Source: Narthecium ossifragum
Lineage: Eukaryota; Streptophyta; Magnoliopsida; Dioscoreales; Nartheciaceae
Assembly: GCA_963920575.1 (NCBI GenBank)
Contig: OY986974.1
Coordinates: 1 to 64,000, forward strand
Direction: 5' to 3'
Length of the DNA stretch: 64,000 bases
The notes beneath the pieces are model-generated. The model was not told the origin of the DNA. It saw only the letters and a program-made list of their open reading frames with translations, and did no database searches. Made by a program: the position numbers and the translations under genes. Position 1 is the first letter of the stretch. The number at the start of each line of letters is the position of its first letter. Of the stretch, positions 6,177-24,307 are shown piece after piece.

Positions 6177-6181
6177 CTCAG
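6177..6181. repeat. target-site duplication, left copy, solo LTR
   Basis: CTCAG immediately precedes the TGTCAC terminus of the solo LTR. In an uninterrupted monomer this site reads GGATCCTCAGCCTCC. The matching copy is at 8764-8768. Confidence 0.95.
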
Positions 6182-6511
6182 TGTCACACCCCGACCCAGA
6201 AAACCCAAGTGGCGCGATACAAAGCGGAATTATATAAAAACTTAAAGAATTTACAATACAGAGGTAAACAGATATACAATTCATATAACATCATTTGTAC
6301 CATTACAAGATCTTCCAATAAAAGAATATTATACATAAATCTCAAAGTCCTCTAATGATACATAATTTACAAAATCCATCAAGTGTACAAGTGATCATCC
6401 TCCAGCAACCTCAAGCGCCTCTGGATGTAGTCGCGCCGCCAAAAGCTGATCTCGCCTGCTCTACTGAAGAAGAACTGGCGTCTGCACCTGCAAACGCATC
6501 CCGGGTAGGAG

Positions 6512-6526
6512 TGAGCGATAAGCTCA
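6512..6526 (-). other. conserved small stem-loop in the LTR
   Basis: TGAGC, a 5 nt loop, then GCTCA form a perfect 5 bp stem. The same stem recurs at 19240-19254 and 24057-24071 in the other element, with a different loop. Its place in the LTR suggests a transcript-level element, but its role is unknown. Confidence 0.45.
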
Positions 6527-7561
6527 GTAGGGTTCTACTCTACGGCACACTGAAGGGAGGAAAACAACAATAGTGTCGTTTCTCCGTCTAAGTCTAAAGA
6601 ATGCCACGGGGTCCCATAACCCCTATCGATTCCCCAAGGGATCCTACTCTTCTCAACCGACCACGCTGGGAACATCAACCAAACACGCTGGGAGGAAACA
6701 AGAGTCAGAGCCAGTAGGAGCACCCTTTACCCAGCAGGAATCCACTGCCTGGGGACACGTCGGGGACATCGACAACCATCCTTAGCACTTGACCTTGGAG
6801 AACCGACACGACCTCTAAACCTCAAACACTGATCAGAGTTAACTAGCGTAATCCTCAATCACAAGAGATTCTGATCAACCATCACCCTAATCCTGACTAC
6901 CCAGCCGCGGTCCTAATGGCTAGATCCGAGCTACCCGAGAGCCTCGGATCGGCGATCAACCCATCGCCCGCCTAACCTCAGATGCCTCTAATGCAATCAA
7001 GATGCATGCAATGCTCAGGCACAGACAAAGAGATATAAGCATGCAACAAGATGTCATTAACCATACAGGGCTAGGCATAGCTTACAGCTAGCCAAAGGGT
7101 AAGCATAGCAAAGGCCTCCAATACAGGTAATCTATGCTAACCAAACAAAGATACTGAACCAAGCATCGAACACAGATATACAATAGTCTTCAGTGCTCTC
7201 TTGCACCTGACAGACTAAGGTTCCACAGTTACCCCGCAGGTAACTGGCCACATTTATACAATAGCCCTCGACACTCGCCGGCAAGAGGCTAAGGTTCCAC
7301 AGTTCTCCATTAGCTAGCACTCATGGCCAACTAATGGTTAGACAATCAAAGAAGCATCTAACTACAAGCAAACAGGTATTAAATGCAATCAAAACCCTAG
7401 TTTCGTCCAAAAGGGAAAATACTCGATTCGATCCTCAAACCCGATAGAAATCCTTTGAAAACATCATGAAATCCACCTATAAACTTCCAAACATATTTAA
7501 GAATCAATCGCGATTGAAAGCCATTCAAGAAAACCCAGAAAACCATGTTCGAGGGCCCACG

Positions 7562-7935
7562 GACGATGCGACAGTCGATCCGCCGATCGACCGTGAGGCC
7601 ACGGTCGATGTCACGGTCGATCCACCGATCGACCGTGAGGCCAAAACGAGGAAAAGCCCATGGGCGACGGTCGATCGGCCCATCGACTGTCGGGAGCCCA
7701 AAACGAGACAGAGCCTCACGGACGATGCGACGGTCGATCCGACGGTCGACCGTCAGGCAGGATGAAAAAGAGAGAACCCACGGTCGATCGACCCATCGAC
7801 CGTGGGAGGCTAAAATCCCGACAGAGCCTGACGGTCGATGCGACGGTCAATGCGACGGTCGATTCGACGGTCGACCGCCAGGCCCAGAAAGTGTAAAACA
7901 ACACTTGACGGTCGATGCACCGATCGACCGTCGGA
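7562..7935. repeat. cluster of seven GGTCGAT/ATCGACC inverted-repeat blocks
   Basis: Within the solo LTR, about 370 bp hold seven blocks built from the half-site ACGGTCGAT and its complement ATCGACCGT, usually 4-8 nt apart. They begin near 7570, 7601, 7667, 7716, 7779, 7828 and 7906. The clearest is ACGGTCGATGCACCGATCGACCGT-like at 7908-7931. Blocks are separated by 10-45 bp linkers, several sharing GCCAAAACGAG or ACAGAGCC. The tract is much richer in CpG than the surrounding LTR. Each block could fold into a hairpin or present a dyad protein site. Open frames across it on both strands follow the repeat and are not convincing genes. Confidence 0.85.
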
Positions 7936-8465
7936 CCTTAGGCACAGTTCATCAGAACAGTGCCGGAAATCCAATATCTTAGATTTCAAGGATCAAATCA
8001 TGTTGGAAATCGATGAAACTTTGCATACAAGTGTAATTCTCGATGGAGAATCCAATGGTATACAAAAATCACATTTTTGACTGTTAAATCTCCAATTTAG
8101 GTTAAAATGGCCGAAAACCGATAAACGGCGATAAAATGGAAACCAACCGTTAAAATACCGGAATCGCAACGTAGGAATACTGAAAACGAGCCACATCACA
8201 AGTGCTACAAGCTACACAATATGCTAACATGTATTCCTACAGCGAAAGCACAATAAACCTATCCTAGGAGAACCCGATCCAAAGATCGAGGTAGAAACAC
8301 CTACTTGAAGAGATAGGGCAGCTCCTCCACGCATCCCCAACTCCGATCGCCGGAATCCGCTCCTCGAAATCCATCCTCCGATGCCCTAGCACCCAGCCAC
8401 AGGAGAGAGAGGAGAAAGAGAACGCAGGAGAAGAAGAAAAGAAAGAGAGAGAGAAAGGAAAGGGG

Positions 8466-8473
8466 TTTAAATA
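8466..8473 (-). promoter_or_regulatory. candidate TATA box of the solo LTR
   Basis: On the minus strand the sequence reads CTATTTAAACCCC, a TATTTAAA box about 290 bp inside the LTR's sense-strand 5' end. It is followed downstream (8396-8460) by a long C/T-rich tract like the Y-patch and pyrimidine leaders of plant core promoters. Position and context fit the U3/R boundary of an LTR promoter. There is no transcription evidence. Confidence 0.5.
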
Positions 8474-22649: not shown

Positions 22650-23490
22650 ACACCCCCGCTGACCGCCTCCACCTCTGGAGCGGCCCGGTCCAGCCCCTGA
22701 TCCGCTCCCGCCACTGCTCCCCTGCCAAGCACTGGACCTCCGCCTCGACTCCCCTGCGGCACAGCGCCACGCGCTCTTCGCAAGTGACAGTCCCTACGGT
22801 AGTGTCCCAGCTGCCCGCACGAGAAGCACGTGACTGACGCGCTATCAGGCTGCTGACCTTGGCCTCCCCCTGACGGAGCCTGCCCAGACGGCCCGGCCGT
22901 CAGGAGAAACTGGCCTGGTGGACTCGGCAACTGTGCCTGGAACTGCTGCGGGTGCTGCGACCGCTGCTGAAAGCGTCACTGACGCCACAGGTTCCCTCTA
23001 CCGAATCCCCCTCTGAACTGGGGTCTCTGCGGTGTGCTGGTAGAGAATGCCGGTGGAACTGCTCGGCACCTCTCGTCTCGCAACTGCGCCCCTACTGCCA
23101 AGGCACAGTCCGGAACTGCTGAGTACGCCTGGAAGCGGTAAGAACTGGTCCGTCGTCTAATCTCTGATCAAAGCCTCTGCTCAAACTGACATGCACTGGC
23201 CACTGGATCTGCTGCTACTGCCCCCGCAAAATGGACCAAGTGCGTGAACCGGGTGGCATACTGCTGAAACTCCAGCAAGACCACCACAGCGGTCCGCGCG
23301 TCGACCGGAGCGAGAACCCCCTCCTCGGCGAGAAGGGTCTCCTCCCGTGCGACCGAGCCGTCGCTGGAGATGGCTCAGTCCGTCTAGCTCTGACCTCCCT
23401 GACAGGTGCTACCCTGTCTGGTCGGGCGGGTCGACCAAGTCGTGCTCCACCCCGACCATCAACCGAAGGTCGCCCTCGAGCTCCCGACAT
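22650..23490 (-). pseudogene. gag remnant with CCHC zinc knuckle
   Basis: Gag packages the element RNA. A start ATG at 23488-23490 opens MSGARGRPSVDGRGG, a plausible Gag N terminus about 200 bp from the 5' LTR. Downstream, in another frame, LLEFQQYATRFTHLVH (about 23.23-23.28 kb) matches the conserved capsid stretch of chromovirus Gag, and CFSCGQLGHYRRDC (22787-22828) is a complete C-x2-C-x4-H-x4-C nucleocapsid knuckle. The distance between the N terminus and the capsid stretch is too short, so much of the capsid is missing, and at least two frame changes are needed (near 23.3 and 22.7 kb). Low-complexity Gly/Arg/Gln linkers surround the knuckle. Confidence 0.85.
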
Positions 23491-23676
23491 CTGCGCAATC
23501 ACCAACAACAAACGAGCGTCCACTCGTTCGAACCCAAGACAAAGAAGCACAACATAAAGCGGAAAAGCACAACACATGAAAATGAGCATGCACAGATGTT
23601 CTAGACATAGAACTAACCCATTCCACGCTCAATCTCAACCGAATCTTGATCCTAAACCCTGGGATCTAAAACCTAT

Positions 23677-23688
23677 GCTCTGATACCA
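23677..23688 (-). other. primer binding site, tRNA initiator Met
   Basis: On the minus strand TGGTATCAGAGC starts 3 nt after the end of the 5' LTR. It is complementary to the 3' end of plant initiator-methionine tRNA, the standard minus-strand primer of plant Ty3/gypsy elements. This fixes the element's orientation. Confidence 0.95.
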
Positions 23689-23691
23689 AGT

Positions 23692-24302
23692 TGTCGCGCC
23701 CCGACCCGCGTAGGCCCACCCGGGCCGGGCGTCGCGAACCGGAACCTAACATACTGCGGAAAATTTTGGCGAGGTTTCCCTCTAATCGTAGTGGTTACCC
23801 TATCAACCATAAACATCCTGTTTTATACAACAAATATAAAGCTCAACACACAAAGCTGGAATATAGTACAAATCCTCAAACAGGGAAAGTTATACAAAAT
23901 CGCTCCCGTAGGAGACTATCTAACCAAAGGTGTACACGGATAGATCACAGCTCCTCAAGCTCCGCCAGACGCCGCCACGTCACCGAACACCTGCCCGGTA
24001 GGGGCGACCGAAGAAGAGCTAGCGCCAGCACCTACAAAACGCAGCCCGGGTAGGAGTGAGCACTAAGCTCAGCAGGGACACTACACTACGACACTCACAA
24101 GGGAGGGAACACAACAGTGTCGCCCCCAAGCAAAACCTAGGTGTATCCCAGGGGTCCCACTAACCATTCTAAGCAAACATTACCACAAACATGGTCAGTG
24201 TGTGTACAAGCGCGAGTGTACAACTAGCCGACAAGGTGCAATTTACAAAATTGCCCTTGCGGCCCACAGCAAGCCACAGGAGGAGAGGGACGGGTCCTCA
24301 CA
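23692..24302 (-). repeat. 5' LTR of the chromovirus
   Basis: 611 bp, equal in length to the 3' LTR and about 96% identical by hand count. It begins TGTCGCGCCCCGAC and ends GTCCTCACA on the + strand. In the element's sense it would carry the promoter. A TATAAAA at 23821-23827 (minus strand) lies about 130 bp before the LTR's end. Confidence 0.96.
23821..23827 (-). promoter_or_regulatory. possible TATA box in the 5' LTR
   Basis: TATAAAA on the minus strand, in context GTTGTATAAAACAGG, is the best TATA-like match in the LTR. It would give a short R-U5 of about 100 bp. The same sequence is in the 3' LTR near 19.0 kb. This rests on the motif alone. Confidence 0.3.
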
Positions 24303-24307
24303 CTCAG
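24303..24307. repeat. target-site duplication, right copy, chromovirus
   Basis: CTCAG follows the GTCCTCACA terminus, and the satellite resumes with CCTTCAAAATAGCAAGC, in phase with the left flank. Confidence 0.97.

What the first reader, a model, noticed from the sequence alone, without database searches (positions are those of the whole stretch)
6177..24307. Two retroelements inserted at the same nucleotide of the satellite monomer, same orientation, same CTCAG duplication
The solo LTR (6182-8763) and the chromovirus (18875-24302) both interrupt GGATC-CTCAG-CCTCC after the same G, and both duplicate CTCAG. If sites and orientation were random within a 181 bp monomer, a match in phase and orientation would be expected about once in 362. 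Chromovirus integrases carry chromodomains linked to heterochromatin targeting, but single-nucleotide preference in a satellite would be unusual. It could reflect nucleosome phasing on the monomer, a DNA-shape preference at the dyad-like GGATCC, or coincidence from two events.
Basis: partly seen in the sequence, partly recalled or inferred. Interest (0 to 1): 0.75.

Follow-up and report, generated by a model that had tools for sequence, protein, structure and literature searches.

The report
Satellite repeat carries retrotransposon's preferred site
Two jumping elements sit at the same letter of a plant's repeated DNA most likely because that spot is the repeat's best match to the weak mirror-symmetric sequence these elements favour elsewhere in the genome, so a striking coincidence has an ordinary explanation.

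Summary
A 2,582-bp solo LTR (6182-8763) and a 5,428-bp Ty3/gypsy element (18875-24302) interrupt a 181-bp satellite at the same base, in the same orientation, with the same CTCAG duplication. Copies on other contigs share these sites and are read as two events. The 1-in-362 estimate assumes uniform sites, which does not hold. Flanks of dispersed copies of the element's LTR lineage show a palindromic target preference: A three bases before the 5-bp duplication (46 of 78) and T three bases after it (55 of 98; G 1 of 98). The solo-LTR family repeats the A (48 of 97), as do held-out flanks (16 of 32). The satellite site GGATC-CTCAG-CCTCC fits the motif and ranks first of 181 phases in four of five models, fourth with solo-family flanks alone; the two pooled models give it 13-20% of insertions, against 0.55% if uniform. 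A junction scan that needs exact anchor words found one further LTR event of this lineage in the satellite, at another phase, in a monomer variant supplying the favoured T (34 of 1,089 monomers). Shared integrase sequence preference explains the coincidence; satellite-specific or nucleosome targeting is not needed, though not excluded.

The parts
1..847 (-). 181-bp satellite in inverted orientation
848..6181 (+). 181-bp satellite array, left of the solo LTR
6172..6174 (+). left half-site GGA (-10 to -8) of the motif RGA-N9-TCY
   Evidence: sequence; motif
6177..6181 (+). target site duplication CTCAG, left copy (solo LTR)
6182..8763 (-). solo LTR, 2582 bp, TGTCACACCCCGAC...CCTCACA; orientation as in the element at 18875, whose pol is on the minus strand
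8764..8768 (+). target site duplication CTCAG, right copy
8771..8773 (+). right half-site TCC (+8 to +10)
   Evidence: sequence
8764..18874 (+). satellite array between the two insertions
18865..18867 (+). left half-site GGA of the second insertion
   Evidence: sequence
18870..18874 (+). target site duplication CTCAG, left copy (element)
18875..24302 (-). Ty3/gypsy element, 5428 bp, degraded: 3' LTR 18875-19485, 5' LTR 23692-24302; pol on the minus strand, broken by stops, only the end of RT matched
19563..20030 (-). integrase C-terminal SH3-like part (PF24626, 19737-20030) and chromodomain-like tail (PF00385, 19563-19715, E 0.0085, below Pfam's cut-off)
20349..20639 (-). integrase core (PF00665)
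23681..23691 (-). primer binding site beside the 5' LTR (ACTTGGTATCA on the minus strand); that it is of the tRNA-Met type is recalled
   Evidence: sequence
24303..24307 (+). target site duplication CTCAG, right copy
24310..24312 (+). right half-site TTC (T at +8 kept; +9 is T, not the favoured C)
   Evidence: sequence
24303..64000 (+). satellite array, continuing outside the window to C12:96620

Best explanation
These are two independent integrations by related Ty3/gypsy (probably chromovirus) integrases that share a weak palindromic target preference, about RGA-N2-[5 bp duplicated]-N2-TCY. The favoured A and T lie three bases outside the duplication on each side, 10 bp apart, about one helical turn. 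The consensus 181-bp monomer contains the strict motif at one phase only, GGATC-CTCAG-CCTCC, so a large share of insertions into the array is expected there. Shown: the insertions, the duplications, the bias at dispersed copies, the rank of the site. Inferred: that the integrase-target DNA complex reads the motif, perhaps through DNA bendability, and that this rather than chromatin set the site.
For:: flanks on C1 show A at -8 in 46 of 78 (chi-square p 1.4e-9), T at +8 in 55 of 98 with G in 1 of 98 (p 1.9e-17), C at +9 in 48 of 98; solo-LTR family, A at -8 in 48 of 97 (p 1.2e-6), G at -9 in 34 of 97 (p 0.028); held-out flanks not used for the model, A at -8 in 16 of 32 (p 0.006), C in 0 of 32. 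RGA-N9-TCY occurs once in the consensus monomer, at this phase; in 210,614 bp of array it occurs 898 times (about 146 in base shuffles), 749 of them at this phase; first of 181 phases with models from element left, right, both, or all flanks; P(phase) 0.13-0.24; bootstrap rank 1 in 403 of 500; shuffled-flank control rank 1 in 6 of 500. Third insertion: A at -8 and T at +8, where 34 of 1,089 monomers have T.
Against: With solo-family flanks alone the site ranks 4th of 181 (P 0.039), so for that element the fit is weaker. The element's actual right flank has T, not C, at +9. The consensus version of the third site ranks 218th of 362; only its actual variant scores well, within the top 1.4-3.7% of array positions. 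Only three events were found in the satellite. The model flanks are the first 100 listed of 2,293, 1,215 and 1,477 matches, all on C1, and the base filter hides T at -1 and +1. In the held-out set the full RGA occurred in 5 of 32. Of 11 elements picked by eye with both ends listed, 4 have both A and T. All three events share one orientation, which the motif does not explain; chance gives 1 in 4.
Confidence: 0.85

Rival explanations
1. Nucleosomes phased on the 181-bp repeat expose this position, and the chromodomain integrase inserts there.
For: The monomer length is near a nucleosome repeat (recalled). The integrase tail resembles a chromodomain, below Pfam's cut-off. PMC6911290 (abstract and passages seen) links plant LTR insertions to predicted nucleosome occupancy.
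Against: The bias is present at dispersed insertions outside the satellite and by itself ranks the site first in four of five models. The third event is at another phase. No chromatin data are available here.
Confidence: 0.1
2. Pure coincidence: the sites are uniform and two of three events happened to agree.
For: Only three events; about 0.8% for any pair of three under the uniform null (3 in 362).
Against: The site was ranked first of 181 by element flanks that exclude the satellite, and the third event also fits the A...T rule.
Confidence: 0.03
3. One insertion, duplicated with its array, then exchanged for the other element by recombination between similar LTR ends.
For: Both LTRs start TGTCRCRCCCCGAC and end GTCCTCACA. 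The array segment is present many times. For the single monomer to the left, only 1% of control monomers are as similar to the element's flank as the solo LTR's flank is.
Against: Solo LTR's flank against controls: at least as similar in 33% (left) and 78% (right) for 1 monomer, 44% and 40% for 3, 64% and 30% for 5. Element's flank against controls: right 93%, 96% and 83%; left 10% and 18% for 3 and 5 monomers. So the two sites are not consistently more alike than other sites.
Confidence: 0.02

Closest known systems
Weak palindromic target consensus of retroviral integrases (Wu 2005, Holman and Coffin 2005; known here only through passages of PMC2527525)
   Same: Symmetric base preference centred on the target site duplication, weak, seen in pooled sites
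   Different: Here a plant Ty3/gypsy lineage, with A/T three bases outside a 5-bp duplication, made visible as a hotspot by a tandem repeat
Tos17 of rice, consensus ANGTT-TSD-AACNT (quoted in PMC6911290, passages seen)
   Same: Plant LTR retrotransposon, 5-bp duplication, palindromic flanks
   Different: Ty1/copia; different bases and spacing
Tekay and other LTR lineages in the 12-genome survey PMC6911290 (abstract and 12 of 15 matching passages seen)
   Same: 5-bp duplications dominate; palindromic motif in pooled logos
   Different: Its palindrome-length test was not significant for Tekay (p 0.61); the passages shown give no motif for that lineage, and the word satellite does not occur in the main text
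ZAM of Drosophila, CGCGCG sites (PMC2527525, passages seen)
   Same: LTR-retrotransposon integrase with sequence-guided insertion
   Different: Highly site-specific; here weak

Membership tests
LTR retrotransposon insertion | TG...CA ends flanked by a short target site duplication | tested here: met
   for both; for the third (CCTCC)
Ty3/gypsy (Metaviridae) | Order protease, RT, RNase H, integrase | tested here: met
   Pfam matches in that order on the minus strand in 6 of 8 pieces given, 2 pieces without a match; RT only its end (profile 146-191 of 205). For the 18875 element only
Chromovirus, Tekay-like | Chromodomain at the integrase C terminus | tested here: inconclusive
   PF00385 E 0.0085, 16.4 bits, below the 25.1 cut-off; the Tekay name is recalled, no tree was built
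Chromovirus, Tekay-like | The solo LTR belongs to the same lineage | tested here: inconclusive
   Shared LTR ends and one 116-bp block at 80.5%; no coding part
Integrase with weak palindromic target preference | Symmetric base bias around the duplication in pooled insertions | tested here: met
   both sides, for the element's lineage, left side only, for the solo family and the held-out flanks
Integrase with weak palindromic target preference | Bias reproduced by purified integrase on naked DNA | not testable with these tools
   needs a bench assay
Site-specific satellite-targeting element | All or nearly all insertions at one satellite position | tested here: not met
   2,293 and 1,477 LTR-start matches genome-wide, the 100 listed of each all dispersed on C1; third satellite event at another phase

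The most novel reading that the evidence does not exclude
The satellite is a ladder of near-identical landing sites: about 65% of monomers (749 of 1,151) carry one optimal integrase motif, and base variants of the monomer open or close further sites, as for the third element. Satellite sequence evolution would then help set where retrotransposons can enter arrays, and fixed-phase insertions could be used to read integrase preference in vivo.
Probability: 0.35. Interest if true: 0.5.

Novelty: new member of a known kind. Interest (0 to 1): 0.38.

Why it matters
Integrase target preferences are weak and usually visible only in pooled data. A tandem repeat presents the same 181 choices thousands of times and can turn a weak preference into a visible, repeated hit. 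The result gives a concrete, testable target motif for a plant chromovirus-type lineage, and cautions against inferring satellite-specific or nucleosome targeting from shared insertion phases.

Tried and rejected
GGATCCTCAGTGT occurs 47 times genome-wide (reversed control 0 and 1): 19 are the satellite copies, 28 lie elsewhere and looked like possible further insertions at this site. All 28 were read (20): none continues with the LTR start; 19 share one dispersed repeat, 3 on C4 share another (checked by BLAST against the three LTRs, no match), and 6 are other sequence.

Right-junction search (990 matches, about 100 listed): C30:6913 and C104:5350 looked like a further element at the site. C30 was read and is the same solo LTR with its first 1,279 bp missing; C104 was not read. 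ATACTCAG matches on C72 (two) and C42 (one) are plain satellite variants.

In one search, 7 of 10 matches are satellite variants that mimic the LTR start, not insertions.

Gene exchange between the two sites was tested by flank similarity and not consistently supported.

Paper searches for satellite-phase insertion hotspots and for a motif of this lineage found nothing fitting: searches returned 0 papers; the listings showed general papers, of which four were opened for passages. This says nothing of papers outside that open-access library or of listed papers not opened.

Rows dropped: 100 rows, internal (primer-site) and duplicate rows removed, 78 kept., 100 rows, 2 removed (98 kept); three more that look internal stayed in there and were removed (95). 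100 rows, 3 duplicates removed (97). flanks, 5 removed as internal (32 kept); two of those kept, L061 and L084, also look internal and would give 16 of 30.

Full report
What is there. The window is the first 64 kb of contig C12 (24.5 Mb) of an unnamed, plant-like genome of 379 Mb in 150 contigs. It is mostly 181-bp satellite; 205 monomers of exactly 181 bp average 93.5% identity to their consensus. Two non-satellite blocks interrupt it at 6182-8763 and 18875-24302. Both left junctions read GGATCCTCAG|TGTC and both right junctions CCTCACA|CTCAG.

What the insertions are. The second block has two LTRs of 611 bp differing at 24 sites (K2P 0.0404, 1.55 My at an assumed 1.3e-8 per site per year). 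On the minus strand it has remains of zinc knuckle, protease, the end of RT, RNase H, integrase and an integrase SH3-like end. A chromodomain-like tail scores below Pfam's cut-off. It is a degraded Ty3/gypsy element, probably a chromovirus; the Tekay name is recalled. The first block is a single 2,582-bp LTR of another family with the same type of ends and one similar stretch, in the same orientation.

How many events. The intact solo LTR start is present at 9 places among the matches scored and the element at 10 (20 of its LTRs), on C12, C146, C135, C110, C65, C42, C28 and C19, spaced 12.6-13.7 kb apart by the coordinates. Copies of the solo LTR on C12 and C146 differ at 9 sites, and three copies of the element differ from each other at 19-21 of 5,428 sites. 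I read them as two events, copied with the array, as haplotypes, or assembled more than once. A scan for LTR starts of this lineage next to satellite words, four words covering all 181 phases and both element orientations, found in the satellite only these two (19 of 21 matches) and one more (7 of 19); two searches gave none. The scan needs exact anchor words, present in 71-85% of monomers, and sees only this lineage. In the 264 kb held directly (C12:1-134000, C146:1-130000) the only other interruptions over 100 bp are a 22-kb block and a 5.4-kb block sharing its left junction.

The third event. At C12:131350 an LTR-ended insertion of 2,218 bp has the duplication CCTCC at another phase, in the same orientation, with 7 copies of its junction genome-wide.

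Target preference. Pattern searches that print flanks listed 100 of 2,293 left and 100 of 1,215 right ends of the element's lineage, all listed ones on C1. Of 11 elements picked by eye with both ends listed, 10 have an exact 5-bp duplication and one 4 of 5; A at -8 is in 7, T at +8 in 7, both in 4. The unique external flanks show a symmetric bias: A at -8, T at +8 and C at +9 strongly, G at -9 weakly. The solo-LTR family shows the same A. Flanks not used in the model, 36 of 37 from other contigs, repeat it: of 32 kept, A in 16, C in none; the full RGA was in 5.

Does it predict the site? With a symmetric model from element flanks, the CTCAG phase is first of 181 and takes 20% of predicted insertions; with all flanks 13%; with solo-family flanks alone it is fourth with 4%. 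Flanks with letters shuffled put it first in 6 of 500 trials. In 210,614 bp of array the strict motif occurs 898 times, 749 at this phase and 127 at phase 164, against about 146 in base shuffles. The third site fits through a rare variant: the consensus monomer has the disfavoured G at +8 there (1,024 of 1,089 monomers); 34 have T, and the occupied one does. Its actual sequence lies in the top 1.4-3.7% of array positions over three models.

Interpretation. The agreement of two insertions is what a weak, shared integrase preference can give when the same 181 choices are offered thousands of times. The chance of two events sharing a phase rises from 0.55% to 3.5-5.4% in the two pooled models, 2.8-7.2% over all five. 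Chromatin is not excluded as a contributor but is not needed. Recombinational exchange is not consistently supported.

Literature. PMC6911290 (abstract and passages) reports weak palindromic preference and mainly 5-bp duplications in plant LTR elements and quotes Tos17. PMC5738225 (passages) found only slight preferences in two barley families. PMC2527525 (passages) covers ZAM and retroviral palindromes. PMC11302176 (abstract and passages) covers centromere targeting by the CR domain. The kind of phenomenon is known; this motif for this lineage, and the satellite hotspot, I did not find in the searches made.

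Noticed in passing
window 1-848: The satellite flips orientation at 847/848; the reverse complement of the same junction is at C146:104685-104686, so the inversion is shared between contigs.
   Followed up: partly
L012-L014 (C12:96621-118766) and C146:60994-66413: A 22-kb block without an evident target duplication interrupts the satellite, with open frames on both strands including one of 1000 codons that looks RT-like by eye; C146 has a 5.4-kb block with the same left junction but a different right end.
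   Followed up: partly
C30:3400-7300 (L029): A copy of the solo LTR lacks its first 1,279 bp and joins satellite directly at the break, a deletion after insertion.
   Followed up: partly
C146, C135, C110, C65, C42, C28, C19: Both insertions recur on these contigs with spacings of 12.6-13.7 kb that differ mainly by about 90 or 905 bp (half and five monomers): recent array amplification, haplotypes or redundant assembly.
   Followed up: partly
window 7557-7880: Inside the solo LTR, short repeats around GACGGTCGATGC in tandem and inverted copies.
   Followed up: no
window 18865-18874 and 24292-24301: The satellite site GGATCCTCAG resembles the element's LTR end GGGTCCTCAC (8 of 10 bases); probably chance, not tested.
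   Followed up: no
C4:7005560-7006300 (L090), C4:7028110, C4:7113520: Three copies of a dispersed sequence begin TGTCACCTCCGAACCCC after GGATCCTCAG and look a little like an LTR start, but 741 bp of one copy has no match to the three LTRs.
   Followed up: yes
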